Shown here piece after piece: positions 3,854-18,100 of a stretch of DNA of 64,000 nucleotides; position 1 is the first letter of the stretch; each line of letters starts with the position of its first letter. The stretch covers positions 5,430 through 69,429 of the forward strand of contig JAUMZL010000007.1 of assembly GCA_030528155.1 (NCBI GenBank), given 5' to 3'. A program made the translations under genes and the position numbers. This DNA comes from Aerococcus sp. GTDB lineage: Bacteria; Bacillota; Bacilli; Lactobacillales; Aerococcaceae. The notes under the pieces were generated by a model. The model saw nothing but the letters and a program-made list of their open reading frames with translations, searched no databases and had not been told where the DNA came from.

Positions 3854-4318
3854 TTATTCGTCAATTAAACTTTTCTTCAAAATACGAATTTGTCGTTGGA
3901 ATCGGTCCATATCTTCACCCACTTGTACATAGCCACGTTTCTCATAAAGTCCGACATGGCGTGTCAATATATACACAGGGGAGAATCCCAATTCTAACGC
4001 TGTGTGCTCAATGGTTTTTACAACCTGCAAGCTGATGCCTTGTTTGCGATAATCGGGATTAACGTAAACGCTGCTGACGAACGGGGTATATTCTGTTTTC
4101 ATCAGCGGATCCTGACGCAAGAAAGCGCCAAACGCCACCAAGGTTTGATTAGGTGTTTCGTTATCAGTCACGTAAATGATGCGTTCCCAATCTTCCCAGT
4201 TTTCTTGCTCCATTAGTTTTTGAATCGCACCGCCAGCCGGCCATTCTACGGCACCAATTTTTTTCGCAGCCGTTAACCATACTTCGTCTTGCGGGGTAAT
4301 GACTTGATACTGAATCAT
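3854..4318 (-). CDS. GNAT-family N-acetyltransferase
   Basis: A 154-residue single-domain GNAT protein. The core FVSSVYVNPDYRKQGISLQVV (about residues 80-100) is the beta4/acetyl-CoA binding motif A (consensus V.P.yRg.GiG), with Q-G-I-S-L rather than the usual Q-G-I-G; GLYEKRGY near residue 125 is motif B. The start is the ATG at 4318: an upstream in-frame ATG is itself part of the GAGGAG ribosome binding site. The gene stands alone, with its own extended -10 promoter and terminator. The substrate cannot be told from sequence. Confidence 0.85.
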   Translation of the reverse strand: MIQYQVITPQDEVWLTAAKKIGAVEWPAGGAIQKLMEQENWEDWERIIYVTDNETPNQTLVAFGAFLRQDPLMKTEYTPFVSSVYVNPDYRKQGISLQVVKTIEHTALELGFSPVYILTRHVGLYEKRGYVQVGEDMDRFQRQIRILKKSLIDE

Positions 4319-4381
4319 CTTTCTACTCCTCATCTTTTCTTAGTAGGTACGCGCCGTAATCACGTCCCTGGAATATCTCTC

Positions 4382-4390
4382 ATTATAACA
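4382..4390 (-). promoter_or_regulatory. Extended -10 promoter of the GNAT gene
   Basis: On the minus strand the sequence reads TGTTATAAT, a perfect extended -10 (TGNTATAAT), 64 bases upstream of the acetyltransferase start. No good -35 is visible; the inverted repeat at 4391-4435 occupies that place. Confidence 0.65.
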
Positions 4391-4435
4391 ATTCCCATGG
4401 CTGGATCCTAACCATCAGAATCAGGCCATGGGAAT
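4391..4435. repeat. Perfect 11-bp inverted repeat at the GNAT promoter
   Basis: ATTCCCATGGC and GCCATGGGAAT flank a 23-base, partly self-complementary centre. No T run follows on either strand, so it is not a standard terminator. It abuts the extended -10 of the acetyltransferase gene and covers its -35 position, so it may be an operator; it could also be a processing hairpin at the 3' end of the flavoprotein transcript. Confidence 0.6.
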
Positions 4436-4497
4436 AAAGGGGATGAGGTCGCACATGACGATTCACGATTCTCCGCATATCTCACGTTTTTTTACCG

Positions 4498-6111
4498 TTA
4501 CTCTTTAATTAATTTTGCTTCGATGCCATTCCCAGCCAAGATACGGGCCGCATTATATGGTGTGATCCCCTTTCTGAAGGTAATATACACCGGACGATCA
4601 GTTGGAATTTCTCCGATGCGATCACGTAGTTCTGAGAATGGAATATTAGCACTTGGCGTAATGGTGCCCTGTTGCGGTCTGCCAGCTTCTCTGATATCGA
4701 GGAAGTAACCATTCTTGCGGTCATCAGCGCTTAATTCTGCTACAGGTACATTTTCCACGCGGTTTTGGATATGGTTAATGGCCACATAGCCTGCCACATT
4801 CAAAATATCGCGCGTTGCTGAATATGGTGGGGAGTATGGCAATTCCAGTTGCGGGAGATCCCACACCGTCAAATTACCGCTGATAGCTACAGATAATTCG
4901 GCAATCCGTTTATCCACGCCTTCCTTCCCATAAGCTTGTCCTCCGTAAATTTTACCGGTTTTGGGATCAAACAAGAGTTTGAAGTTCAAACGCGCTGCTC
5001 CGGGATAGAAGTAAGCGTGATCGAATGGCGTAATAAATACGGTATCGTAATCAGTGATCCCTTCCTGTTGAAGCATCATTTCGGTGTAACCGACAAAACT
5101 AGCCGTATAATCAAACACTTTTGCGACACTTGCCCAGATAAACCCAGGATAATGCAGATCTTCTCCTTCGATAATATCCGCTAAAAGGTGGCCTTGACGG
5201 TTCGCTGCGCTAGATAAGACACTATTAATGGGTTTTCCAGTAATAATGCTCTTGGTTTGAATGATGTCACCAATGGCAAAAATATCCGGAATGTTGGTGC
5301 GCAATTGATCGTCCACAGGTACATGGCCATCTGCGGTTGTTTCTACCCCAGCCGCTTTGAGCACTTCATTATTTGGCGTGACACCGGTCATAAATAGCAA
5401 CATATCAGTGTGCAGAATTTCGCCGTTATCGAGCTCTAATTCATGACCGTGATCACGAATTTCAACCACACTGGTGCCCAACTTCATATGAGCGCCTTCA
5501 TCCTGCATCGTTTGCGCCATCAGTTCAGCCACTTCTTCATCATATGGTGCCGCTACAGTATCTGCACTATCTACAATGGTCAGGTCAATCCCGCGGTGGA
5601 TCAGGTTTTCCCCCACTTCGATCCCCTGCAAACCAGCACCGATGATCACGGCCGATTGGGGATTTTCCTTCGCCAAATAGTCGAGGATTTCATCCAAGTG
5701 CATCGTGTTGCGCAAAGACAATGCAATATCTGCTTCTTCGGCACCAGGGATATTCGGCAACGCTGGACGGGCCCCAGTTGCCAGGATCAACCGGTCGTAT
5801 GGCTGCGTCAATGTCTCACCTGTTTCCAGATTCGTCACCGTTACCGTTTTTTCTTCGGTATCGATTTTTTCTACTTCATGGCGCACTTTGACATCGATAT
5901 TATTCTTTGCTTTCAATTGTTCTGGCGTCCGTTCCACAATGCTTTGGCGATCTTCAACCAAACCACCAATCACGTATGGCATCGCGCAGGTCGCAATAGA
6001 AATTTCCTTGCTTCGCTCATAGATGGTAATATGATGCTTCTCATTTAAACGGCGGAGACGTGTCGCAAATGAAGGCCCAGCAGCAATCCCACCAATAACT
6101 ACGATTTCCAC
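4498..6111 (-). CDS. cdr: CoA-disulfide-reductase-like flavoprotein with degenerate rhodanese domain
   Basis: A 537-residue pyridine nucleotide-disulfide oxidoreductase. Residues 1-20 form the FAD Rossmann fold (VVIGGIAAG). Cys42 in ATCAMPYVIGG matches the single active-site Cys of CoA disulfide reductase/NADH peroxidase-type enzymes. A second Rossmann motif (IIGAGLQGIEVGE) lies near residue 157, and FAIGDI near 275. Residues about 450-537 are a rhodanese-like domain, as in CoADR-RHD fusions. However, the site that normally carries the catalytic Cys reads TFRKGITPYNAARIL, without Cys, so sulfurtransferase activity is unlikely. The start is a GTG with AAGGGAG seven bases upstream. The family reduces CoA disulfide or polysulfide/persulfide with NAD(P)H; which substrate applies here is open. 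A TTCAC-NN-GTGAA palindrome follows its -10. Confidence 0.85.
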   Translation of the reverse strand: MEIVVIGGIAAGPSFATRLRRLNEKHHITIYERSKEISIATCAMPYVIGGLVEDRQSIVERTPEQLKAKNNIDVKVRHEVEKIDTEEKTVTVTNLETGETLTQPYDRLILATGARPALPNIPGAEEADIALSLRNTMHLDEILDYLAKENPQSAVIIGAGLQGIEVGENLIHRGIDLTIVDSADTVAAPYDEEVAELMAQTMQDEGAHMKLGTSVVEIRDHGHELELDNGEILHTDMLLFMTGVTPNNEVLKAAGVETTADGHVPVDDQLRTNIPDIFAIGDIIQTKSIITGKPINSVLSSAANRQGHLLADIIEGEDLHYPGFIWASVAKVFDYTASFVGYTEMMLQQEGITDYDTVFITPFDHAYFYPGAARLNFKLLFDPKTGKIYGGQAYGKEGVDKRIAELSVAISGNLTVWDLPQLELPYSPPYSATRDILNVAGYVAINHIQNRVENVPVAELSADDRKNGYFLDIREAGRPQQGTITPSANIPFSELRDRIGEIPTDRPVYITFRKGITPYNAARILAGNGIEAKLIKE

Positions 6112-6134
6112 AATGGCACTCCCTTTCTTAATAT

Positions 6135-6146
6135 TTCACTTGTGAA
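6135..6146. promoter_or_regulatory. Palindromic operator (5-2-5) at the cdr promoter
   Basis: TTCAC-TT-GTGAA is a perfect 5-2-5 inverted repeat. On the minus strand it lies two bases downstream of the cdr -10 box, over the expected transcription start. The same palindrome in the same position occurs at the MarR-family gene (35119-35130). Confidence 0.7.
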
Positions 6147-6148
6147 TT

Positions 6149-6154
6149 ATTATA
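6149..6154 (-). promoter_or_regulatory. -10 box of cdr
   Basis: The minus strand reads TATAAT about 40 bases upstream of the GTG start. The -35 region is weak. The palindrome immediately downstream suggests repression by steric block. Confidence 0.6.
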
Positions 6155-6258
6155 AACCTTTCACCATAAGAATACTAGTGAAGCGTTTTCCAATTAAAAT
6201 GGCGATTATTCTGGCCTAAAAAGTACGTACTGAAGGTTTATTTGTCGGTTTATTCACA

Positions 6259-6273
6259 TTATAACGCTTACAT
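6259..6273 (-). promoter_or_regulatory. cre-like site between cdr and gpmA
   Basis: The minus strand reads ATGTAAGCGTTATAA, one mismatch from the Gram-positive catabolite-responsive element WTGNAANCGNWNNCW. It lies just upstream of the gpmA -35 box and could serve either divergent gene. CcpA is encoded in this window. Confidence 0.5.
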
Positions 6274-6285
6274 CGTTTTTATGAG

Positions 6286-6314
6286 TTGCCGACATCGATC
6301 AATTCAAGTAAAAT
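6286..6314 (+). promoter_or_regulatory. Sigma-A-type promoter of gpmA
   Basis: TTGCCG (6286-6291) and TAAAAT (6309-6314) are separated by exactly 17 bp. The ribosome binding site AAGGAGG and the gpmA ATG follow about 30 and 40 bases later. Confidence 0.75.
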
Positions 6315-6354
6315 ATGTTTGTAACTGGATAGTTGAATTTAAGGAGGAATTTTA

Positions 6355-7029
6355 ATGAAATTAGTATTTGTTCGCCACGGACAAAGCGAATTGAACCTCG
6401 CCAACGTGTTCACTGGCTGGATGGATCCAAAGCTGAGTGAAAAAGGGATCGAAGAAGCTAAAAACGCTGGTCGCGCCCTCAAAGAAGCTGGTCTCGAATT
6501 TGACCAAGTGCACACTTCTGTTTTGACTCGTGCCGTTGAAACAGCTTTCTACGTATTGGACGAATTAGGTGAATTATACTTACCAATCGAAAAGAGCTGG
6601 CGCTTAAATGAACGTCATTACGGTGGTTTACAAGGTTTGAACAAAAAAGAAACCGCTGAAAAACACGGTGACGAACAAGTTCACATTTGGCGTCGTAGCT
6701 ATGATGTCCGTCCTCCACGTGGTGAAAACGACTTCGACCGTCGTTACCAATTATTGGACACCGAACGTTTATTGCCAGGTGAATCCTTGAAAGACACCTT
6801 GGGACGTACTTTACCATACTGGGAAGACCATATTGCCCCAGACCTCAAAGCTGGTAAGAACGTGCTCGTTGTTGCTCACGGTAACAGCTTGCGTTCCCTC
6901 ACCAAATACTTGGAAAAAATCTCTGATGAAGAGATTCCAAACCACGAATTAGCAACGGGTGAACCAATCGTTTACGACATTGATGAAAACTTGAATGTCG
7001 TAAGTAAAGAAGTCCTCAAAAAAGCCTAA
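6355..7029 (+). CDS. gpmA: 2,3-bisphosphoglycerate-dependent phosphoglycerate mutase
   Basis: A 224-residue cytoplasmic glycolytic enzyme that interconverts 3- and 2-phosphoglycerate. The phosphohistidine motif VRHGQSE (His8) is at the N terminus, NERHYGGLQGLNK lies at about residues 84-96, and the second active-site His is in VVAHGNSLR near residue 180. Length and motifs are those of the dPGM family. An AAGGAGG site lies eight bases before the ATG. The codon use is that of a highly expressed gene. The gene is monocistronic, with its own promoter and terminator. Confidence 0.97.
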   Translation: MKLVFVRHGQSELNLANVFTGWMDPKLSEKGIEEAKNAGRALKEAGLEFDQVHTSVLTRAVETAFYVLDELGELYLPIEKSWRLNERHYGGLQGLNKKETAEKHGDEQVHIWRRSYDVRPPRGENDFDRRYQLLDTERLLPGESLKDTLGRTLPYWEDHIAPDLKAGKNVLVVAHGNSLRSLTKYLEKISDEEIPNHELATGEPIVYDIDENLNVVSKEVLKKA

Positions 7030-7084
7030 TTATTCAATGCAAAAACCGCCTGCAGATTGAACTGCGGGCGGTTTTTTGTGTGGT
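7030..7084. repeat. Left direct repeat bounding the peptide island
   Basis: From TTATTCA through the terminator to GTGTGGT, this segment matches 11321-11376 in direct orientation, with only a few substitutions and a small indel ahead of the stem. The pair exactly brackets the A+T-rich block containing the MFS, ThiF, Rgg and peptide genes. Confidence 0.8.
7041..7076. terminator. Bidirectional terminator after gpmA (copy 1 of a flanking repeat)
   Basis: A CCGCCTGCAG / CTGCGGGCGG stem with an ATTGAA loop is flanked by A5 on the left and T6 on the right, so it can stop transcripts from both strands. An almost identical copy lies at 11335-11369, on the other side of the ThiF/MFS/Rgg island. Confidence 0.9.
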
Positions 7085-7092
7085 AAAAAGCT

Positions 7093-8331
7093 TTATTGGA
7101 CTGATGTATTGTGGTTATATTCTTTTTTCTTTGACATGAAGAAGGTCCCCATGTAAACAATGCCCGCCAACCCTAAGACTGACCACAAAGCAAAAGGTAC
7201 CGATACGCTTGCAGCAATAAAGCTCCCTAAAATGGTTAGTAACGGTTGTAAAATTCCTGTCATACTTCCGAGTAATCCCATCACCATAGGAATATCCTCT
7301 GCCTCAACAGACACCATCACATAAGTTGTAAATAATGGTGAAACCGCACCAACTATTGAACTAAACAACACATTAATAATCAAAAATAAAAAATGAAGGT
7401 TAAAAATCAGAGCAATCGTTTCGGCGATAAGTATTGGGAAACCAACAACTATCAGTAGCTTTATTCGATCATTATCTGGCTTCATTTGATTAGTAATAAT
7501 AACTCCTAATAAATAACCGATGATTGTACCCGCGGAATACAAGGATAGCGAGAAAGCGTAGTTTCCTATAAGCAAATGCCCATGCTCAGCTAGCCACATT
7601 TGAAATAATGGGAGTAACAGTGCCGGAAATAACATGAGCAAGGAGGACTCCACTATTATCCGTAACATACCAGGACGAGCACCAATAAGTCTAAGCACTC
7701 CTGTGATACTTGTGGTTAAATTCTTTGTGTTTGCTGGTCTACTTGAAATCTTTATCTCTTTCCTATAATAGAAAATAAAACTTGCCGATATCAAAAAAGT
7801 AAACGCATTAATCCAAGCAAATTGACTGAAATCAATAAATAGAATGAGAAAACTCGTTGCTACCATAATGATGATATTGACTAGCTGAAATACAAAATTT
7901 TCAAAGATATTGACTGCTTGATACAGCGTCTTAGGAACAATCTCCACTAATAATGTCAGTGTTAAGCTACTACGGTACTGCCCCAAATTGTCAGAAATAA
8001 AATTGATAAGTACGATGACCAATAAGAATGAATAAGCCTGCCCACTTAAAAATAATCCACCGACTATCAAATAAAGTAACGCCCGTATAATATCTAAAGC
8101 CAGCAATCCTTCGTATTTTTTGCTGGTTAATACCGCCAAACGACTTCCCACCACTTGTAACATTTTTGGAATCATTTCAGAAGCTGTGACAGCCGCGATC
8201 GCCAACTTAGCGTGTGGTGCATTGGCTGCAAAAGTAGCCATGGCAATGTAAAACATATTGTCGCCAATAAATGAAATTAATGTTGAAAGCAAGAGACTAA
8301 CAGTCATTCGGCTTTTAAATAGTTCACGCAT
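7093..8331 (-). CDS. MFS transporter, putative peptide exporter of the island
   Basis: A 412-residue integral membrane protein with about twelve hydrophobic segments and the overall plan of an MFS drug/H+ antiporter-like permease. The start is taken as the ATG at 8331, which overlaps the end of the upstream ThiF-like gene by 8 bases (ATGCGTGA), so the two are translationally coupled. An earlier ATG at 8391 lies inside that gene and is less likely. In microcin C7-type clusters an MFS protein (MccC) exports the product made by a ThiF-like enzyme (MccB), and the arrangement here is the same. Export of the modified peptide and producer immunity are inferred, not shown. Confidence 0.85.
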   Translation of the reverse strand: MRELFKSRMTVSLLLSTLISFIGDNMFYIAMATFAANAPHAKLAIAAVTASEMIPKMLQVVGSRLAVLTSKKYEGLLALDIIRALLYLIVGGLFLSGQAYSFLLVIVLINFISDNLGQYRSSLTLTLLVEIVPKTLYQAVNIFENFVFQLVNIIIMVATSFLILFIDFSQFAWINAFTFLISASFIFYYRKEIKISSRPANTKNLTTSITGVLRLIGARPGMLRIIVESSLLMLFPALLLPLFQMWLAEHGHLLIGNYAFSLSLYSAGTIIGYLLGVIITNQMKPDNDRIKLLIVVGFPILIAETIALIFNLHFLFLIINVLFSSIVGAVSPLFTTYVMVSVEAEDIPMVMGLLGSMTGILQPLLTILGSFIAASVSVPFALWSVLGLAGIVYMGTFFMSKKKEYNHNTSVQ

Positions 8332-10144
8332 GGGTAGCACCTTGCCCTTCTTCAAGGATGGCGAAAAGTGGTGCTGTCTCTGCAATAGCATGATAATATT
8401 TCAATGTTTTTAATGGTCTATCATGGCAAATATGATCAGCAATAATTTCTTTAATCTCGTTATCATTTTTTGTATAAGATTTAATCCTATCAAGAAATTT
8501 TGATTGATGGCCTCCCAATACACTAATCTCATAACCTAGCGCAACGTGGTAAAGAACAAACGAAGAATAGGTTTCAAATAACATATAATCAATTAACGGA
8601 GAAATTTTATCATTGTCTTTATTTTTGATTAAAAAATTTAGGTGGTGATATCTAACAAAAGACTCATGGACATAATCATTACTGGACATAGTGTAGCAAA
8701 AATAATGTAACAATTCGTGTATTAATAAATGCGTAAGCTTGTCTTGTGGATAATCTCCTGCAATATAAATTAAGCGATCTTGTCCTAGTCGCTTTGTATA
8801 AGCTCTTTGCTTATGTAGTCTTCCTGAACTGATATAAATTCTACCTTCTTTAATTATTTTATTGATATCTTTTGTTGTTAGAGTATATAAATATTGATCT
8901 GCGTAGTCACCAAATAACTTTAAGATACTGGAATCATCAACCTCTTTATTTTTAAATCTAAAATGCCGTTTCTTAGAATAATATTGATCAAATAAGCTCC
9001 AATTAATATCTTTTTTAATATAATTTTGAGATAGCGCGTCTATTTTCAGATGAGGAATTAACAAGTGTTTATCTATATTTCGAGATTCTATCTGCTTATA
9101 TTTAAAGTCTCTGTCCGCACAATTTATATATTTATAATTATGTTTTATATCGTTTTTAAATTCATTAAATATGTGCGCATTAAATATATTTCCTATATAA
9201 TAAGTATTTAAATAATAATCCGAAGCTGCATATTCCGTATCTTCAATGTCAAATATGTCATCAAAGATCATTTTTATAACACTAAATGTGTGGAATAAAC
9301 TATTTAGTATTGATCCAGAATTAACATTAATCATATCAGGTGTTTCTTTATTTTCAGAAAGATTGTCTAGAATCATCTTATAGTTTTTAGAAGTTACTTT
9401 AAACACTGTTTGTTGCAGAGTTGAGTAACCTCCTGCTATAAGCACTATATTAGTATAATCCGTAAACAAGTGATTGATGATATCTATATTCAGATTTTGA
9501 TCATCAGCACAATTAACAATATAATCGATATTCGATAAATTAACTACATTTATTAACGAACGATAAGAATCAACATACATATTGATAGCTGTAATATCAC
9601 ATGGCGTTTTCGCATACCTTTCTGATAAACTTTTAGCTTTAAACTCCCCCACCTCATCTTTTGTATATATCTGTGACTCTATATTTCCTTGTTCTACTCT
9701 GTCTCCATCTATTAAAACAATAGCATTTATTCCTAATTTTATTAGGTATTCTGTTAAATAGCTTCCGCCCGTCCCTAATCCGATGATTAATATATTAGAA
9801 TTAAGTAATTCGCTTTTAAATAACTCATAGTCTGTATAAGGAAATGATGATACAAAGCGATTCAATCTAGAATCATCACCAGCTTTTTTAACATATTGCT
9901 CCTTTTCTAGCAGAGTAATGATGCTCTCTTTATCTTTTTTATTGATATCTTTGTACTCTGCGAGTTCTCTTTTACTCCTTGGCTCTTTTAAAAATAATAA
10001 AAAATTAAAGATATCATCTACTGATAAAGAATCATTTTGGATAATATTCTTTTGTAACAATCGATTATCAGAATACACTGAAATATAATCTTTACATTTT
10101 TTCCAAGAAAGTTCTGATTTTAATTGAATTTTATTTTCACACAT
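8324..10144 (-). CDS. E1-like (ThiF/MccB-type) peptide-activating enzyme fused to a zinc-peptidase-like domain
   Basis: A 606-residue protein with three parts. (1) Residues about 40-90 resemble a small winged helix of the RiPP-recognition-element kind (FNFLLFLKEPRSKRELAEY..., ending LLEKEQYVKKAG). (2) Residues about 112-345 are a ThiF/E1 adenylation domain: GLGTGG at 122-127, LIDGDRVEQGNIESQ at 145-158, and NCADDQN at 211-217 with the usual acidic residue. No CxxC zinc knuckle like that of MoeB is seen. (3) The C-terminal half carries HELLH at 476-480 with Glu494 downstream, a gluzincin-like zinc site. The start is the ATG at 10144 behind AAGGAAGGTGAG. The gene is far richer in A+T than its neighbours (9 G/C in 9121-9180). 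Role inferred: ATP-dependent activation of a peptide carboxylate and perhaps leader cleavage. I do not know this fusion from any characterised pathway. Confidence 0.8.
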   Translation of the reverse strand: MCENKIQLKSELSWKKCKDYISVYSDNRLLQKNIIQNDSLSVDDIFNFLLFLKEPRSKRELAEYKDINKKDKESIITLLEKEQYVKKAGDDSRLNRFVSSFPYTDYELFKSELLNSNILIIGLGTGGSYLTEYLIKLGINAIVLIDGDRVEQGNIESQIYTKDEVGEFKAKSLSERYAKTPCDITAINMYVDSYRSLINVVNLSNIDYIVNCADDQNLNIDIINHLFTDYTNIVLIAGGYSTLQQTVFKVTSKNYKMILDNLSENKETPDMINVNSGSILNSLFHTFSVIKMIFDDIFDIEDTEYAASDYYLNTYYIGNIFNAHIFNEFKNDIKHNYKYINCADRDFKYKQIESRNIDKHLLIPHLKIDALSQNYIKKDINWSLFDQYYSKKRHFRFKNKEVDDSSILKLFGDYADQYLYTLTTKDINKIIKEGRIYISSGRLHKQRAYTKRLGQDRLIYIAGDYPQDKLTHLLIHELLHYFCYTMSSNDYVHESFVRYHHLNFLIKNKDNDKISPLIDYMLFETYSSFVLYHVALGYEISVLGGHQSKFLDRIKSYTKNDNEIKEIIADHICHDRPLKTLKYYHAIAETAPLFAILEEGQGATHA

Positions 10145-10195
10145 TATTCTCACCTTCCTTATTGAAGTTGGAATAATTCTATAATTTTACTGCCC

Positions 10196-10220
10196 ATTCA
10201 TTTGTTTTCTGTCGTATACT
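10196..10220 (+). promoter_or_regulatory. Putative promoter/regulator site of the Rgg gene
   Basis: ATTCATTT (10196-10203) precedes a -10 box TATACT (10215-10220) in the context GTCGTATACTT. The same two elements, spaced 3 bases further apart, lie before the small peptide gene (ATTCATTT at 11129, GTCTTATACTT at 11148). There is no good -35, as is usual for activator-dependent promoters. The resemblance is short and could be chance. Confidence 0.35.
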
Positions 10221-10253
10221 TAAACAAATACTTTTTAAAAAGGAGAGACAATA

Positions 10254-11111
10254 ATGGCTTCATTGGGATACTACGCACGACTAATACGGAAAAGTAGGCA
10301 ACTCACTCTCAAACAAGCAGCTAATGGGATTGTCTCGGAAGCTTTTTTATCTAAGTTTGAACGTGGTGAAAATGACATGAGTGCTGAAAAATTCTTACAG
10401 TTGCTTGACCGCCTAAATGCTACCTTCTGGGAATTAGCACGACTAATTGATCAAAACGATCAATGTTCTCAAACTTATTTTTATACTCAGCTTAAGCAGG
10501 CAGTAGTTAGTGATAATATTTATCAACTCAATGTTCTTATCAACAAAGAAGAAGAACTTTATCAAGAGGATCACAACTACCGCCATAAGCACAACAGCAT
10601 CTTGTTGGGTCAGTTTATTAATAAAATTTCTCAACTCCCTTTCGACACCAAGAAGACAAATCAATTAATACAATATTTACTCTCTGTTGAAGAGTGGGGG
10701 GACTATGAAGTTTCACTATTCTCCAATAGTTTGTTTTTCTTCCCTATTAATAAGATAGAGCTATTGTCGCGTACTGCCATGAAGCGCATTAAGATGGATT
10801 ATCAGGATTCCTATCAGCACGTTATGGCTTTAGTGATGTTAAATTCTATTTATGCTTTTCTACAAGCAGATGAACTGATTAAAGCTCAAAGTTTGATCAA
10901 TCAGGTGCAGAATTTATTAAAAAACTCTCGGTTTTACTATGAAAACAATAAATTGAATTTCTATAAGGGATACTTATTAATTAAGCAGGGAAAAATAGAA
11001 AAAGGTAAAAAAATAATTCAATCATCTATCCTTATTATGAATCAACTGGGTGATTATGAGAATGCTAAAGCCCATGAACAAGAACTCGGATATATTTTGA
11101 AAATAAATTAA
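10254..11111 (+). CDS. Rgg/GadR/MutR-family transcriptional regulator
   Basis: A 285-residue cytoplasmic regulator. Residues about 5-65 are an XRE-type helix-turn-helix (LRxSRQLTLKQAANGIVSEAFLSKFERGEN...). The remainder is an all-helical, TPR-like Rgg C-terminal domain that in relatives binds a short peptide pheromone. An AAGGAGAG site precedes the ATG. It is transcribed divergently from the ThiF/MFS operon and precedes the small peptide gene by 90 bases. Rgg proteins often control adjacent peptide-modification operons, so regulation of both flanking transcription units is the likely role. The effector could be the local peptide or another peptide; this is not resolvable here. Confidence 0.85.
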   Translation: MASLGYYARLIRKSRQLTLKQAANGIVSEAFLSKFERGENDMSAEKFLQLLDRLNATFWELARLIDQNDQCSQTYFYTQLKQAVVSDNIYQLNVLINKEEELYQEDHNYRHKHNSILLGQFINKISQLPFDTKKTNQLIQYLLSVEEWGDYEVSLFSNSLFFFPINKIELLSRTAMKRIKMDYQDSYQHVMALVMLNSIYAFLQADELIKAQSLINQVQNLLKNSRFYYENNKLNFYKGYLLIKQGKIEKGKKIIQSSILIMNQLGDYENAKAHEQELGYILKIN

Positions 11112-11150
11112 CTATTTGACTGTATTTAATTCATTTCCCCATACCGGTCT

Positions 11151-11156
11151 TATACT
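11151..11156 (+). promoter_or_regulatory. Putative -10 box of the small peptide gene
   Basis: TATACT in the context GTCTTATACTT, with TTGACT further upstream (11116-11121) at a spacing too long for a normal sigma-A promoter. The element ATTCATTT at 11129-11136 is shared with the Rgg promoter region. The expected 5' leader before the peptide start is about 40 bases. Confidence 0.35.
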
Positions 11157-11201
11157 TCTTTTCAAGAGTTTAGCTCTAAATAGTCATGAGGAGGCATAAC
11201 C

Positions 11202-11297
11202 ATGGAAAATGAACCATTAATTTTGCAATTGGAAGAACCTATCAATAGTGATGAACAAGATGGTGTTATCGAAATTAAGAATTGCCTATTCTTATAG
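11202..11297 (+). CDS. 31-residue peptide, putative RiPP precursor
   Basis: A short gene with a strong ribosome binding site (GAGGAGG, seven bases before the ATG). The peptide starts MENEPLILQLEEP, has an acidic middle (NSDEQDG) and ends IKNCLFL. It has eight acidic residues and one Lys, a single Cys (residue 28) and a hydrophobic tail; there is no secretion signal. It lies between the Rgg gene and a strong terminator. Acidic leader-like segments with a hydrophobic core such as LILQLEEP are typical of RiPP leaders recognised by winged-helix RRE domains, and the adjacent ThiF-like enzyme has such a domain. Its modification and final structure are unknown. It might instead be only a signalling peptide, though it is unlike the basic, hydrophobic SHP pheromones. 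Confidence 0.75.
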   Translation: MENEPLILQLEEPINSDEQDGVIEIKNCLFL

Positions 11298-11320
11298 TAG
11301 ATAAGTACGCACAGAAGCTA

Positions 11321-11376
11321 TTATTCACATGAATAAAACCGCCTGCAGGTTGAATTGCGGGCGGTTTTTGTGTGGT
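11321..11376. repeat. Right direct repeat bounding the peptide island
   Basis: A second copy of the gpmA-terminator segment at 7030-7084, running from TTATTCA to GTGTGGT. The identical order of features (short A-rich lead, stem, loop, T run, GTGTGGT) shows common origin rather than convergent terminators. Confidence 0.8.
11335..11369. terminator. Bidirectional terminator between the peptide gene and the clbS-like gene
   Basis: A CCGCCTGCAG / TTGCGGGCGG stem with A4 before and T5 after. It can end both the peptide transcript (plus) and the ClbS/DfsB-like transcript (minus). Confidence 0.9.
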
Positions 11377-11397
11377 TATTCATCTACAGTGCCCTGA

Positions 11398-11916
11398 TTA
11401 CAAGGCACTTTTCTTCCATTTTCTGATTTTCGTCCGAAATGTCCCGAATGGTGCTACCGTATTGACATGAATAAACTTGTAGACTTCCCATACAGCTGTT
11501 TTCGTAGCTTCATCTGCCCATTTCCGCTGATGAGGTTGGAATAACTCCTCCTCGCTCAATGTATCAATCATAACGTAGATGGCATCCACATTCTCACTTA
11601 GCATAGACTTCAGCGTTTGGAGTGATTGGTGGGCATAGGTATCCGTAAACCATTGATAGAGTTCTCCCAGTTGATTCCACTTAAAGTCTTCAGTGGGGGT
11701 CTTGACATTCAAACCCTTGCGTTCATCTGATTCCCATTTGAGGACTAAGGTCGTCCAGCCTACCTGATAAGCAAGATTTTCAGCCGGCGTTCGGTCCACT
11801 GTAGCCACCCGTGTATCCTTCAATGCTTCTGGAATATCATCAAACTCTGCTAGATATTTTCCAAATGTTTTCTTTATTTCAGCCTTGAGCGCCTCTTTAC
11901 TTTCATATGTGCGCAT
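11398..11916 (-). CDS. ClbS/DfsB-family four-helix-bundle protein
   Basis: A 172-residue protein of the ClbS/DfsB (DUF1706) family in the DinB-like superfamily. Recognisable features are the N-terminal YESKEALKAEI, the central WESDERKGLNVKTP and the C-terminal VNTVAPFGTFRTKIRKWKK. The start is the ATG at 11916 behind AAGGAGGTG. The best-known member, ClbS, protects a colibactin producer; most Firmicutes members have no known substrate. It lies just outside the right terminator repeat, so it was probably the convergent neighbour of gpmA before the island arrived and need not belong to it. Confidence 0.85.
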   Translation of the reverse strand: MRTYESKEALKAEIKKTFGKYLAEFDDIPEALKDTRVATVDRTPAENLAYQVGWTTLVLKWESDERKGLNVKTPTEDFKWNQLGELYQWFTDTYAHQSLQTLKSMLSENVDAIYVMIDTLSEEELFQPHQRKWADEATKTAVWEVYKFIHVNTVAPFGTFRTKIRKWKKSAL

Positions 11917-12079
11917 AAAAAGCACCTCCTTATCATCACTGTGATTTAACAGATGATTATAGCATGTCTATGCCGTTTATTTACCGAAATCTCGTTTCTT
12001 TGCTGTCTTTATCTTTTGGATATTGGCTAGCATCCTCAATCTAGCCAGACTGACTTAAACTTATTTTACCGTTTCTAAC

Positions 12080-12127
12080 AAAAAATCGCCCAGAGAATTT
12101 TCTCATTCTCCGGACGATTTCTTTTTT
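12080..12127 (-). terminator. Terminator of the wall-anchored glycosidase gene
   Basis: Arms AAATCG-CC-GAGAAT and ATTCTC-GG-CGATTT form a long stem flanked by A-rich and T-rich tracts on both strands. It lies 71 bases beyond the glycosidase stop. Confidence 0.88.
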
Positions 12128-12197
12128 AGCGTGTCACATCACCCATCATGAAAATTTTATACAACACATGCTCTATGTTGTTCTTTCCATTATCCGA

Positions 12198-15100
12198 TTA
12201 GTTTTGTTTACGCCGTTTTGTTTTGGCTAAACCGAAACCACCAGCTACTGTAAGTACACCTGCCAACAGCGACATACTGCTGGTTGCACCGGTTTGTGGC
12301 AAACGTTCTGCTGATGCTTTCGCTGCTGCTTGTGGATCTTTCACTGCTGAAGTGTGATCTGCTTTGTCGGTAGCATCCGCATGATGAGGTTGATCGACCG
12401 TCTCACTATTATCTGGTTTTTGGCCAGGTTTATTATCCGGTTGGTCTGGTTTTTGACTCGGTTGATCTGGTTTTTGACTAGGATCGATTGGTTTGTCATC
12501 AGGATCGGTTGGCGTTTCACCAGATAAAACATGGACCGTAACGGTGAGTGTTGTCATTGACCCATCAGGATAGGTAACAACGACTTCACCCTTAACCTCA
12601 CCCACAAGCAAAGTATTAACTGGCGTCTTCCAGGCCACCTTGGTGTCTTCTGGTAAATCCGCCTTGTTCATAATAGCGCTCATGGCATCTGGCGTTTCGC
12701 CTTGATGAACGGTAACATCTTGACCCATTGCAGTGTATTTTTCATTGTCTTGGCGGTCATCTTGGATCGTCAAGGTAACAGCCACTTCATCGCTAGAGCC
12801 GTCCGCATAGGTCACCACGATCGTCAGCGCTTGATCCCCGACTTTATCCATCACTGGCGCTTGTTTCCAAGCGTAGGTCGCGTCTTTCGGCAAGCTGATG
12901 ATGTTTCCGATCATTGACTCCACTTCTGGGGCTTTATCACCAAGGTTGAAGGTGCGATCTTTTCCGGTTGGTGTGTACTTGTCGGCATCTGTGCGGTTGT
13001 CTTGGATCGTCAAGGTAACGGCCACTTCATCGCTAGAGCCGTCCGCATAGGTCACCACAATCGTCAGCGCTTGATCCCCAACTTTATCCATCACTGGCGC
13101 TTGTTTCCAAGCGTAGGTCGCGTCTTGTGGCAAGCTGATGATGTTTCCAACCATCGATTCCACTTCTGGGGCTTTATCGCCAAGGTTGAAGGTGCGATCT
13201 TTCCCAGTTGGCGTGTACTTGTCAGCATCTGTACGGTCGTCTTGGATCGTCAAGGTGACAGCCACTTCATCGCTGGAGCCGTCCGCATAGGTCACCACAA
13301 TCGTCAGCGCTTGATCCCCAACTTTATCCATCACTGGGGCTTGCTTCCAAGCGTAGGTGGCGTCTTCTGGCAAGCTGATGATGTTTCCAACCATCGATTC
13401 CACTTCTGGGGCTTTTGCTCCTAGTGGCAACGTACGGTCTTTTCCAGTTGGCGTGTACTTATCGGCCTCTGTGCGGTTGTCTTGGATCGTCAAGGTAACG
13501 GCCACTTCATCGCTGGAGCCGTCCGCGTAGGTCACCACAATCGTTAGCGCTTGATTCCCGACTTTATCCATCACTGGTGCTTGTTTCCAAGCGTAGGTCG
13601 CGTCCTCTGGCAGGCTGATGATGTTTCCGATCATTGACTCCACTTCTGGGGCTTTATCACCAAGATTGAAGGTGCGATCTTTTCCAGTTGGCGTGTACTT
13701 ATCGGCATCTGTGCGGTTGTCTTGGATCGTCAAGATAACGACCACTTCATCGCTGGAGCCGTCCGCGTAGGTCACCACAATCGTTAGCGCTTGATCCCCG
13801 ACTTTATCCATCACTGGTGCTTGTTTCCAAGCGTAGGTCGCGTCCTCTGGCAGGCTGATGATGTTTCCCACCATCGATTCCACTTCTGGGGCTTTATCAC
13901 CAAGGTTGAAGGTGCGATCTTTTCCGGTTGGTGTGTACTTGTCGGCATCTGTGCGGTTGTCTTGGATCGTCAAGGTAACGGCCACTTCATCGCTAGAGCC
14001 GTCCGCATAGGTCACCACAATCGTCAGCGCTTGATCCCCAACTTTATCCATCACTGGTGCTTGTTTCCAAGCGTAGGTGGCGTCCTCTGGCAGGCTGATG
14101 ATGTTTCCAACCATTGATGCTGCTTCTGGGGCTTTATCACCAAGATTGAAGGTGCGGTCTTTTCCGGTTGGCGTGTATTTATCGGCTTCCGATTGTGTCG
14201 CTTTGGCTTTAATCGTCAGGGTCGCGGTGACTTCATCCTTCGTACCATCGCCATAGCTCACTTCGATCGTTACTGTCTGTGCACCGACTGTATTCATGTC
14301 TGGGGCTTGTTTCCAAGCATAGGTCACGTCTTGCGGTAAGTCAGTCACGTTACCGATCATGGATTCTGGCAACGGTGCAGCGTCTCCTTGCGTCATTTCT
14401 TTGGCACTACCCACTGGCGTATATTTATCTGCTTCCGATTGTGTCGCTTTTGCTTTAATCGTCAAGGTTGCGGTGACTTCATCCTTCGTGCCATCGCCAT
14501 AGCTCACTTCGATCGTTACTGTCTGTGCACCGACCGCATTCATGTCTGGGGCTTGTTTCCAGGCATAGGTCACGTCTTGTGGTAAGTCAGTCACGTTACC
14601 GATCATGGATTCTGGCAACGGTGCAGCGTCCCCTTGCATCATTTCTTTAGGAGTGCCCACTGGCGTGTATTTGTCGGCTTCCGATTGTGTCGCTTTTGCT
14701 TTAATCGTCAAGGTCGCGATGACTTCGTCCTTCGTGCCATCGCCATAGCTCACTTCGATCGTTACTGTCTGTGCACCGACCGCATTCATGTCTGGGGCTT
14801 GTTTCCAGGCATAGGTCACGTCTTGCGGTAAGTCAGTCGCGTTACCGATCATGGATTCTGGTAATGGGGCGTTGTCCCCTTGCATCATTTCTTTAGGACT
14901 ACCCACTGGTGTGTATTTGTCGGCTTGAGTTTGTTTACCCATCACATGAACGGTCACCGTAATGGTTTCTGTACTGTCGTCTTTATAGGTAATAACGATG
15001 ACGCCCTGTTGATCGCCAGCATTAGCAGTATCAATTGGCTTCTGCCATTCATAAGTGGTTCCTTCAACGATATCTTTGGCATTCTTAACCCCTTCTATCG

Positions 15101-18100
15101 CTTCTGGAGCCTTATCACCAACCATGACCGTAATATCTTGTCCTTGTGGTGCCGTTTGGAAGGTCTCATTGATCTGGTCTATCATGTCAAAAGCATCATC
15201 AACCGTCTTTTGATCCTTCGCTTCAAGCGCTAGCACGGCTTGTTCTAATGCAGAGATGACCACTTGTGAGGAGGAGAAGGTTGGACGTTCTTTCAATAGC
15301 GTTGCAAATTTCTCCAAGGCATTGCGCAAGTAGCTAACGGTCACTTTTGGCGTGAGATCCGCTTTTTTCTCTACGATTGGCGTAAATTCCGCCACTGCCA
15401 CCACGCTGTTTTCCTTGTCTTGACTCCAGTGGTGCGTTTCTAGTGCTTGTAGGCGGAAGAATTTCGCTTCGACTGGATTAAAGCCAATATTGGTGGAATC
15501 AGTGGTTTCTGGGAAGGTAAAGACATCTGTGCCGTTCGTAAATTGAACGTCTTGCCAGGTCTTACCATCCAAGCTGTATTGAATCTTCGCTTTTTTCACA
15601 TTCCCTACCGCTGTTGCTGATGCTTGGCGTGGGGTGTAGATAATATGGCCAACCGTTTGTTTTTCTGGCAATTCAACCACGAGGTATTGTGGGTCTTGAG
15701 CATTATTCTTCGTTGGATCACTTGCCCAATAGGTATCGACATTGCCGTCTGTCGCATCACCTGCTGGACGAGCACCGTTATCATTTGGATCGAAGGAAGT
15801 AGCCGTAGTCCCCTTGATTGGTACATTTTCCCAAGTATCCTGCGGTGAAACGGTATGTACCCAATTCATGGCTTCGACATAGTCTGTGTCACCGTTCGCA
15901 AGGATAAAGCGGTCAATCTTGCCAGCGAAATCTTTGGTTCCTACTGTCACATTAGTGAGATCAAGCGGGAGATTTTGCTGTTTGTTGTTGTAGAAGGTAT
16001 CCCGTAATTCGCCATTGATGTAAAGCTTGAGACTCCCATTCTTCATGCGACTAGCCGTAATAACCACGGTTTCTCCGAGTGGTAGTTTCGTATCTGGTAG
16101 GTCTTTATCATCGGCTTTAAGTTGGGTATAAACCATTGACCCTACTTTGTCATCTTTCACTTGGAAGAAGACTTCGCCCTTGTCGTCGACATAGAGTTTC
16201 CATTGTCCGTCTTGTTCTGCCAACGTTTGACCATATTTATCAAGCGATGCTTTAACCGTTACGGAGAATTCACCAGTCCCCTCTACCCCATCTTGTTGTA
16301 AGGTTTGACCTGGTTTTACTGCTGAAATATCTTCGATGACGTTATCGGTGTAAGCCTTCAGATCTACGGAGCCATTTGCTTGGTTTGGTTGTCCAGCCAA
16401 GTCTAAAACATTCGCGTAGTCAACTGTTACTTCATCATGATCATCGAGCGTATCGTTCAATTCGATCGTTACCGTACGTAAATCCGCTGCTAGCGTCACA
16501 TTTTTGACGGTGTGGTTGGCTACCGTAAACGTTGCCTTATCGATGTTAATTGTTTCATCAAAAGCTAATACGATCTTATTATTGCCTGGAGTTTGGGTTG
16601 TCTGTACTTGAGCCGGTGTCGTATCTGCTTCTGTACTATATTCAAATACCAAGGTTTCGTATGGTTTGAGGGTGAGAACCAAGGTATCTCCGTATTTCGT
16701 CAATTCTGTTGTGTTGTGCGTTCCATCACCGAGAATGGTTTTGCGGTAAAGGCCTTTAATGCCTTCTGGTACCCCAACCAAACGATCTAGCTTCAATTTA
16801 TAGGTTTGTTCCTTGTTGATTGGGTTGCGGACAGACACAATGCCTTTGTTGCCATCCCATGCGGAGTAGCCGTACACTTCGCCATGCCCTGGAACACCAC
16901 CGTGGAACTGCGAGTGTTTGAGGACCTCGTAGTTATCTTCCATCCAATTGACAGCTTCCCCATTGACGAGCCATTTATCATCGTCCATCATGCTTGGGCT
17001 GTAATAGAATTCCCAAAAACCATTTCCACGTGTCCCTAACATGTAGAGATAGTTACGGAAGTCTTCGGTAGAGAAGTTAATCTTGTCACGACCTGGCCCA
17101 CCTGGATATTCGTGTTTACCAGAGTTTGCTTTTTCACCATAGACAGGGTCATGGTTGTAGATATTCGCAAATGGTAATTGCCATTGCCGATCGTTGGCTA
17201 AGGCTTGGTAGGAATTGTCACGATAGGTGATGGCTTCATTAGCATCATTACCGAAATCCAAGTTCTTGTAGGCGTCTTCCTTCACACCGTCCATGTAATC
17301 CACGTCACCGGAGTTTTGCATCCAGATGGAGTTCACCCATTGCATGAACCATGGAGAAGGCGGAATGTAAGAAGTTAAGTTAATCCACATATTATCGGGA
17401 TCACTGGAGTTTTCCCGAATCACTTTGAAGAGGTTGATCCAACGTTCGAAGGTTTCGGTCATGGAGTACATGTTCTTGTACCCGCCACCGATAAAGTTCC
17501 CATTTGGATCGGTATCTGGACGTGGGCTGAGCAGTAAGCCATCGAGTTTCCAGTAGTTAATATCGAATTTCTTCTCGTAATCTGCAAAGACTTTGGCTAA
17601 ACCGTCCGTATAGCGTTTGTCCCCAACATAAACGACGCCATTGTATTTCGAACCCAGGTTTTGGTTAACGAGGTTATCCGCTAATTTACCCGGTTCAGAA
17701 TAGCCCCCTTGTGGCCCAAGCCATACCCCGAAGTTGCCATCGAAGCGCCCCACTTGTTTATAGGCACTGTAGAATTTATTCGGGAATTTATCATTGAAGT
17801 CCCACAAAGTCGTCATGTCCTGCCAACCATCGTCGACAACATAAGCATCAAGCGGACGGGTTCCCCCGAGGTCGAACCCACGATCGATTTCGTTGAAGCT
17901 CTCTTGGATATTGTCAGACGTAATGTCCTTCATATGGTCAAACCAGGAGTTGAACTGTTTTCTGAAGTAGGTCTTCTGACCAATTTTGGCAATATAGTCG
18001 TAGAAGTCCTGTTGAATGACACGGTAGTCATCCGAACGAGCAGCCCCGAAGACGGTACGCCAGGTTTGATATTTACCACTAGCGTCAACACCCATTTGGT

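What the first reader, a model, noticed from the sequence alone, without database searches (positions are those of the whole stretch)
7085..11334. Possible new ribosomally made peptide system: 31-residue precursor, ThiF-peptidase fusion, MFS exporter, Rgg regulator
Directly seen: an unlisted small gene (11202-11297) with a strong ribosome binding site, a divergent two-gene operon in which an E1-like enzyme overlaps an MFS exporter by 8 bases, and an Rgg-type regulator between them. From known families: microcin C7 uses a ThiF-like enzyme (MccB) and an MFS exporter (MccC); pantocin uses a ThiF-like enzyme (PaaA) on a precursor of about 30 residues; Rgg proteins often run such operons in lactic acid bacteria. 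Inference: the peptide is activated by adenylation, trimmed and exported. Neither a C-terminal Asn (microcin C) nor the pantocin Glu-Glu-Asn core is present (Glu-Glu-Pro-Ile-Asn occurs instead), so the chemistry would be new.
Basis: partly seen in the sequence, partly recalled or inferred. Interest (0 to 1): 0.93.

Follow-up and report, generated by a model that had tools for sequence, protein, structure and literature searches.

The report
Cyclic peptide gene cassette using ThiF
A small, probably horizontally acquired bacterial gene cassette very likely makes a short ribosomal peptide whose tail is closed into a tiny ring by a ubiquitin-activating-like enzyme; it looks like a new branch of a recently recognised family of peptide-making systems, with a predicted ring like that of staphylococcal signal peptides.

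Summary
A 31-codon gene (11202-11297) with AGGAGG follows rgg (10254-11111); a divergent thiF-MFS pair (8324-10144, 7093-8331) overlaps by 8 nt; near-identical terminators bound the AT-rich block. The ThiF-HEXXH fusion recurs in 6 other distinct loci (HEXXH in 7 of 7); ThiF-only relatives in 9 more. Precursor cores were found in 14 of these 16 loci (two lack a normal start codon; one locus has none, one is uncertain). All 14 carry Cys or Ser at the fourth or fifth residue from the end, with natural Cys/Ser swaps (CIFG/SIFG, CIIA/SIIA, NICVINK/NISGIYK). Best reading: ThiF adenylates the C-terminal carboxylate and the Cys thiol attacks it, giving a four-residue Cys-Leu-Phe-Leu thiolactone, as published IndF closes Trp(-4) onto Ile, but in the orientation of Agr peptides. 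The HEXXH part probably trims the leader, MFS exports, Rgg regulates. ThiF-made macrocyclic peptides are already known (IndF, GrcB, EnfB): a new variant of a known kind. The chemistry is inferred, not shown; an enterofaecin-like backbone imide remains possible.

The parts
11202..11297 (+). precursor peptide gene, 31 aa, MENEPLILQLEEPINSDEQDGVIEIKNCLFL
   Evidence: cognate cores in 13 other loci
11283..11294 (+). predicted ring: Cys(-4)-Leu-Phe-Leu-COOH
   Evidence: Cys/Ser at -4 or -5 in 14 of 14 precursor cores; ring closure inferred
11189..11194 (+). Shine-Dalgarno site AGGAGG of the precursor
10254..11111 (+). rgg, Rgg/GadR/MutR-family regulator, 285 aa
   Evidence: 32-38% identical to Rgg of the L005, L135, L161, L191 cassettes
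8324..10144 (-). ThiF-like adenylyltransferase with C-terminal HEXXH region, 606 aa
9887..10114 (-). N-terminal RRE-like (winged-helix) region of the ThiF protein
   Evidence: weak AlphaFold model: two strands then helices, pLDDT 61-71 over residues 11-80; Foldseek alignments to MccB of 304-325 columns
9335..9814 (-). ThiF adenylation domain
   Evidence: PF00899; conserved Asn, Gln, Lys and Asp-Asp
8705..8719 (-). HELLH zinc-site motif
   Evidence: HEXXH in 7 of 7 full-length relatives
8663..8668 (-). His-Glu 13-14 residues after HEXXH, possible third zinc ligand
   Evidence: HE in 6 of 7, QE in L161; ligand role inferred
7093..8331 (-). MFS exporter, 412 aa, start overlaps thiF by 8 nt
10145..10253 (.). 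divergent regulatory region between thiF and rgg
   Evidence: no sigma-70-like site reported there and no SHP gene found
7040..7076 (-). hairpin terminator at the end of thiF-MFS (and of gpmA from the other side), copy 1 of the flanking repeat
   Evidence: 35 nt, 94% repeat; -22.1 kcal/mol, z -5.8
11335..11370 (+). hairpin terminator behind the precursor gene, copy 2 of the flanking repeat
   Evidence: -22.5 kcal/mol, z -4.5

Best explanation
A probably imported ThiF-type RiPP cassette. The 31-aa precursor binds the N-terminal RRE-like domain of the ThiF protein through its leader; the E1 domain adenylates the C-terminal Leu carboxylate; the thiol of the Cys four residues from the end attacks it, releasing AMP and closing a Cys-Leu-Phe-Leu thiolactone (a lactone where relatives carry Ser). 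The fused HEXXH domain removes the leader, the MFS protein exports the product, and Rgg controls the divergent thiF-MFS operon, possibly in response to the re-imported product. Shown: gene set, recurrence of the precursor tail and of catalytic motifs. Inferred: leader binding, ring chemistry, cleavage, export, signalling.
For: Same Rgg/precursor/ThiF/exporter set in L. plantarum plasmids, G1018 and G1347. C-terminal tails CLFL, CIFG, CGNI, CGNL, SIFG, CIIS, CIFG, CIIA, SIIA (nucleophile at -4) and SGIIK, SNIWK, CVINK, CVVNK, CIVCK (-5): Cys or Ser in 14 of 14, against 56 of 236 background Shine-Dalgarno ORFs with Cys or Ser at either place. Orthologues L194/L196 (Cys) and L200 (Ser) swap at the same codon. 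Top Foldseek hits of the model are MccB, then PaaA. Gln/Lys/Asp of the ATP site present. Published IndF closes Trp(-4) onto the C-terminal Ile of ...NWYFI (PMC12150305). ThiF-only relative L137 overlaps a GHKL kinase gene followed by a LytTR regulator, as in agr.
Against: No chemistry was measured. L135, the closest ThiF relative, has Rgg and MFS but no precursor found. L191 and L196 cores lack an ATG/GTG/TTG start. L064 has four tandem cores, of which only the last has a free C-terminus. The -4/-5 rule was drawn from the same sequences, and these fall into about seven lineages, not 14 independent cases. CGNI/CGNL lack the aliphatic-aromatic pattern of some other tails. EnfB is reported to close onto a backbone amide behind a Trp pair, and the L136 core has a Trp-Trp as well. 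The C-terminal domain gave no PDB sequence match and no usable model. The Foldseek match to MccB has low TM-scores (0.27 by query, 0.47 by target, rmsd 10) over its length.
Confidence: 0.6

Rival explanations
1. Same RiPP cassette, but the adenylated C-terminus is attacked by a backbone amide or an external amine (enterofaecin-like imide or C-terminal amide), and Cys/Ser is kept for another reason.
For: EnfB is reported to do both on ...WIVI (review PMC12250964, section 5); tails here are mostly hydrophobic, and L136 (WWSIFG) has a Trp pair.
Against: Cys/Ser at -4/-5 in 14 of 14 cores with natural swaps; the window peptide has no Trp.
Confidence: 0.15
2. Microcin C-like Trojan horse: the peptide's C-terminus is joined to a nucleotide and the product poisons an aminoacyl-tRNA synthetase.
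For: ThiF plus MFS pair; MccB is the best match by sequence in the PDB and by Foldseek.
Against: No C-terminal Asn in any of 14 cores; no self-immunity gene seen in the cassette (by eye).
Confidence: 0.06
3. The peptide is a linear Rgg pheromone (like ComS or SHP) and ThiF modifies something else.
For: The precursor lies directly behind rgg on the same strand, as comS behind comR (recalled); radical SAM or ThiF genes lie near 11 of 21 rgg regions of S. thermophilus (PMC12445099, passages).
Against: The same tails occur in loci where I saw no Rgg neighbour (L084, L136, L192, L193, L197; by phmmer with the window, L005 and L064 Rgg); the window peptide lacks the hydrophobic SHP look; in L005 a separate SHP-like ORF exists (7883-7954).
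Confidence: 0.1
4. The cassette is a remnant without function.
For: Some relatives are broken (frames of L136 and L200, start of L196; L135 without precursor).
Against: All four window genes are open and keep their motifs; the precursor has a strong ribosome site and a terminator.
Confidence: 0.07

Closest known systems
IndF/IndA (ind cluster, Streptococcus pneumoniae; PMC12150305, parts 1 and 2 of 3 read)
   Same: RRE-ThiF enzyme, short precursor, adenylation of the C-terminal residue, side-chain nucleophile at -4 giving a four-residue ring; peptidase and transporter; in L073, which holds an IndA-like ...NWYFI gene, an Rgg gene lies beside it; leader looks similar by eye (MEDFNILELEFEE / MENEPLILQLEEP).
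   Different: Nucleophile is Trp indole; IndP is a separate M16 protease; the L073 ThiF has CxxC pairs in its C-terminal half and falls outside the window clade in the tree, on a long branch.
GrcB/GrcA (GRC-type thiolactone; review PMC12250964 sections 4.1 and 4.2 read)
   Same: ThiF-like enzyme making a thiolactone; quorum-sensing neighbourhood.
   Different: Reported link is from an internal Glu to the C-terminal Cys, the reverse orientation; works with radical SAM partners; the window precursor does not end in Cys.
EnfB/EnfA enterofaecin (review PMC12250964 section 5 read)
   Same: Lactic acid bacteria, RRE-ThiF, adenylated C-terminus, short precursor.
   Different: WWIVI core, backbone imide; no fused peptidase mentioned in the section read.
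MccB/MccA (microcin C7) and PaaA (pantocin A)
   Same: ThiF domain with an N-terminal leader-binding domain; MFS export for microcin C (recalled).
   Different: No C-terminal Asn, no Glu-Glu-Asn core.
Agr autoinducing peptides (AgrD/AgrB)
   Same: Predicted product: small C-terminal Cys thiolactone with a hydrophobic ring; the L137 ThiF gene overlaps an AgrC-like kinase gene followed by an AgrA-like regulator.
   Different: Made by a soluble E1-like enzyme with ATP instead of the membrane protease AgrB (recalled); ring of 4 instead of the usual 5 residues.

Membership tests
ThiF-like adenylyltransferase RiPPs | ThiF/E1 adenylation domain | tested here: met
   PF00899 74.8 bits, cut-off 28.1; conserved Gln/Lys/Asp. 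No NCBIfam model reached its cut-off
ThiF-like adenylyltransferase RiPPs | N-terminal RRE | tested here: inconclusive
   RRE-like topology at pLDDT 61-71; Foldseek alignments to MccB of 304-325 columns but low TM-score; RRE-Finder not available
ThiF-like adenylyltransferase RiPPs | adjacent conserved precursor peptide | tested here: met
   14 of 16 loci of the clade
ThiF-like adenylyltransferase RiPPs | ATP-dependent modification of the precursor | not testable with these tools
   needs biochemistry
Microcin C (MccA/MccB) | precursor ends in Asn | tested here: not met
   window ends in Leu; 0 of 14 cores end in Asn
Pantocin | Glu-Glu-Asn core | tested here: not met
   EEPIN in the window leader only, absent from the other precursors
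Ind-type indolylamide | Trp at -4 | tested here: not met
   Cys at -4
GRC-type thiolactone | C-terminal Cys linked to an upstream Glu | tested here: not met
   window ends in Leu, Cys at -4
GRC-type thiolactone | radical SAM partners | not tested
   none noticed by eye among ORFs 4000-16000, no profile search
Agr autoinducing peptide | AgrB processing protease | not tested
   no AgrB search was run
Rgg regulators | Rgg C-terminal domain | tested here: met
   PF21259 110.6 bits, cut-off 27
Rgg/SHP pair | SHP gene beside rgg | tested here: inconclusive
   none found in the window; SHP-like ORF in L005 7883-7954
zinc metallopeptidase (C-terminal domain) | HEXXH plus downstream acidic residue | tested here: met
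   7 of 7
zinc metallopeptidase (C-terminal domain) | zincin fold | tested here: inconclusive
   best Pfam hit SprT-like, 14.4 bits against cut-off 25.6; no PDB sequence match; model pLDDT 34

The most novel reading that the evidence does not exclude
A second, independent route to agr-type thiolactone/lactone signals: an E1-like enzyme fused to its own leader peptidase makes AIP-like cyclic peptides that are sensed by the adjacent Rgg (or, in L137, an AgrC/AgrA-like pair), spreading as mobile cassettes among lactic acid bacteria.
Probability: 0.3. Interest if true: 0.82.

Novelty: new variant of a known kind. Interest (0 to 1): 0.62.

Why it matters
It gives a testable, one-enzyme, one-peptide system for ATP-driven thiolactone formation in the orientation of agr signal peptides, with natural Cys/Ser variants already in hand. 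If the product is a signal, it would mean that thiolactone signalling arose more than once and that Rgg can read cyclic peptides. It also points to precursor genes missing from the gene tables beside ThiF genes, for example on three L. plantarum plasmids.

Tried and rejected
A single-sequence scan of the 84,980 species genomes found no relative; the alignment scan found 32 loci: one long relative, Apilactobacillus timberlakei (L084), and 31 with shorter matches around the ThiF core, which were not examined for precursors. Phage records: no match. Viral contigs: 11 short ThiF-core matches, not followed. Plasmids: of 3 and 5 records matched, three L. plantarum records cover the whole protein. 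Microcin C and pantocin membership rejected on the core. Promoter scan: fewer sigma-70-like sites (19) than in shuffles (mean 25.5), so no promoter is claimed; the terminator scan missed both flanking hairpins, probably because the T run is part of the stem; one search shows them. The C-terminal domain had no PDB sequence match and an unusable model (pLDDT 34), so it was not searched by fold. The full-length model is weak outside the ThiF domain (mean pLDDT 55.5); VIA-align rows span 88-313 only, so other parts are untested. Tree: 28 rows; L136 and L200, with broken frames, were left out; the branch holding the window is starred (95/80) but also holds L198, a 762-aa protein, its forks are open, L005 and L198 are long branches, and the -4 and -5 tails do not form one clade each. 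L198 was kept out of the 16 loci because its profile E-value (1.8e-31) and size set it with the larger type; its candidate peptide ends CYCVILC (Cys at -5 and at the end). L135 was searched for a precursor by motif, by Shine-Dalgarno site and with the window peptide over the whole genome: none found. The L137 small ORF (ends NKCECCT) was left out of the 14 as uncertain. Wang et al. 2024 (ACS Omega, PMC11256085), the survey of ThiF systems in lactic acid bacteria, is not held and I know it only from the review; whether it lists this subgroup is unknown. Statements that I found nothing in print rest on searches of open-licence papers only.
Full report
What is there. On the plus strand lie rgg (10254-11111) and, 90 nt on, a 31-codon gene (11202-11297) with AGGAGG seven bases before its ATG; on the minus strand a 606-codon ThiF gene (8324-10144) and an MFS gene (7093-8331) that overlap by 8 nt. 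The block is AT-rich (26-38% G+C in the 500-nt steps from 7250 to 11250, against 39-53% on either side) and is bounded by a 35-nt repeat, 94% identical, at 7042-7076 and 11335-11369, each copy folding into a strong hairpin (-22 kcal/mol, z -5.8 and -4.5). In the two held species of the genus with the closest gpmA (97% and 90% identical as protein) an ABC-transporter-like gene lies next to gpmA instead. None of the 14 other held genomes of the genus and 75 others of the family gave a full-length match to the enzyme; partial ThiF matches were found in 2 of the 14 and 22 of the 75. The cassette is therefore probably imported; the empty site itself was not seen base for base.

Is the peptide gene real? 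Three loci of the Rgg branch (window, L. plantarum plasmid L005, G1018 L161) have a Shine-Dalgarno ORF behind rgg. In shuffles of the same 300 nt such an ORF arose in 54, 12 and 18 of 4000, and with Cys at -4 in 6, 0 and 2 of a further 4000. The two L. plantarum variants (L005, L007) differ at 15 of 1854 thiF bases (7 synonymous, 7 non-synonymous codons) and at 1 of 78 precursor bases, with the same peptide; too few changes to show selection. The precursor is not listed in the plasmid gene tables (those tables are incomplete).

Relatives. I take as the clade the loci with profile E-values of 1e-36 or better in the whole-genome searches, plus the plasmid and Apilactobacillus hits. ThiF proteins that keep the C-terminal HEXXH part: the window, L005-L007 (one locus in three plasmid records), L064, L084 (apparently the same contig as L134), L135, L161, L191, i.e. 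seven distinct loci. They are rare: 2 of 395 genomes of the order, 3 of 301 and 5 of 397 of the Lactobacillaceae-like family (overlapping draws; the family name rests on the Apilactobacillus contig), 1 of 398 of the class (the window's own), 0 of 304 of the streptococcal-like family at E 1e-25. HEXXH is present in 7 of 7, followed 13-14 residues on by His-Glu in 6 and Gln-Glu in 1. Shorter relatives without that part: L136, L137, L192-L197 and L200, nine loci, L136 and L200 with broken frames. Sixteen loci in all. A tree of 28 ThiF domains, without L136 and L200, puts the other 14 together with L198 (762 aa) on a starred branch (95/80), apart from the IndF-like L073 and from other ThiF groups. 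Rgg of L135, L161, L005 and L191 is 32-38% identical to the window's, more than the Rgg beside the L073 IndF (26%). The exporter changes: MFS by Pfam in the window, L005, L135 and L191; MFS-like only by similarity to the window protein (phmmer about 1e-8 to 1e-17), without a Pfam match, in L194, L195 (split), L196 and L200; ABC by Pfam in L064, L084, L161, L192, L193 and L197. That fits a job of merely moving a small product.

The precursors. Fourteen of 16 loci have a core: window KNCLFL; L005 IGCIFG; L161 VLCGNI; L191 VICGNL; L136 WWSIFG; L194 TICIIS; L195 LICIFG; L196 TICIIA; L200 MISIIA (nucleophile at -4); L064 NISGIYK three times then NISGIIK; L084 YISNIWK; L192 NICVINK; L193 NICVVNK; L197 NICIVCK (nucleophile at -5). 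L191 and L196 have no ATG, GTG or TTG in front of the core. L135 has none that I could find; L137 has an uncertain candidate. Cys or Ser stands at -4 or -5 in 14 of 14: Cys at -4 in seven, Ser at -4 in two, Cys at -5 in three, Ser at -5 in two. Among 236 Shine-Dalgarno small ORFs of the same loci the figure is 56, and 20 for Cys alone. The loci are not independent (about seven lineages) and the rule was read from them, so the figure is a guide only. The swaps are the strongest hint: L195 and L005 CIFG against L136 SIFG, and the orthologues L196 CIIA against L200 SIIA, codons TGC and TCT.

How it most likely works. The model of the enzyme is confident only in the ThiF domain (pLDDT 82-95 in blocks over residues 111-230), plausible for an N-terminal RRE-like part (61-71) and poor behind residue 300 (25-47, with 51-63 around HEXXH). 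Foldseek ranks MccB first (3h5n_D, E 6.5e-11, 304 columns, TM-score only 0.47 by target) and PaaA high (5ff5_A, 1.1e-8). The Asn, Gln, Lys and Asp-Asp positions are kept; by eye the Gln and Lys are those of IndF, where the Lys is needed for activity and the Gln helps a little (PMC12150305, parts 1 and 2 of 3 read). IndF adenylates the C-terminal Ile of ...NWYFI and the Trp at -4 attacks it, so a four-residue ring closed by the -4 side chain is a published reaction of this enzyme class. Cys in the same position predicts a Cys-Leu-Phe-Leu thiolactone; Ser variants would give lactones, and the -5 group a five-residue ring of the size of Agr peptides. The HEXXH part would remove the leader. In L064 the four repeats can all be used only if the peptidase first frees each repeat's C-terminus; otherwise only the last is used; this is unexplained. 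Signalling is suggested by rgg upstream of the precursor on the same strand in nine loci (broken rgg in L194 and L196, with another ORF between in L196; L135 has rgg but no precursor) and by the GHKL kinase and LytTR regulator behind the L137 ThiF, but an antibacterial role is as possible.

Known or new. ThiF-made RiPPs are a recognised kind: microcin C, pantocin, GrcB thiolactone, EnfB imide, IndF indolylamide (review PMC12250964: abstract, passages, sections 4.1, 4.2 and 5 read). Radical SAM or ThiF genes near rgg are noted in S. thermophilus (PMC12445099, passages). New here, as far as the held literature shows, are the fused HEXXH domain, the Cys/Ser tail and the AIP-like orientation; GrcB is described as the reverse orientation. 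The survey by Wang et al. 2024 could not be read. Verdict: new variant of a known kind.

Noticed in passing
L031 6531-6581(+) (G007, same genus as the window); L142 6824-6771(-); L143 6111-6161(+); L144 5811-5882(+); L164 5636-5689(+): A second ThiF group (321-331 aa) has candidate precursors of only 16-23 codons, four of five ending G-x-R-x-G-x-R (e.g. MTAEVVNRPGYRIGGR, MTVVAVQTFPGHRVGGR); L164 ends GCGLR. The five ThiF domains form one starred branch.
   Followed up: partly
L140 6966-6898(-), L162 5534-5602(+), L163 5908-5979(+), L165 5798-5872(+), L198 6232-6128(-), L199 6234-6169(-): ThiF proteins of about 760-795 aa (5 of 6 looked at have a HEXXH; the L165 gene is broken) lie next to short ORFs ending in Cys, four of them with PNTC-C---C; some start with TTG or GTG.
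   Followed up: partly
L064 6283-6456(+): Precursor with four tandem copies of a 10-residue core, NDVNISGIYK three times and then NDVNISGIIK.
   Followed up: partly
L137 3756-7127(-) (G439): ThiF gene overlapping a GHKL histidine kinase gene followed by a LytTR response regulator, like agrCA, with a 45-aa ORF ending NKCECCT upstream.
   Followed up: partly
L005 7883-7954(+): SHP-like 23-aa ORF MKQSKTMIFIKTAILAFSIWILI between rgg and thiF of the L. plantarum plasmids.
   Followed up: no
L135 8515-9312: The long rgg-thiF spacer holds a short duplicate of the start of thiF, as if a rearrangement had taken place there.
   Followed up: no
window 12198-19871(-): 2557-aa LPXTG-type surface protein with long tandem repeats and an endo-alpha-N-acetylgalactosaminidase-like look (by eye).
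   Followed up: no
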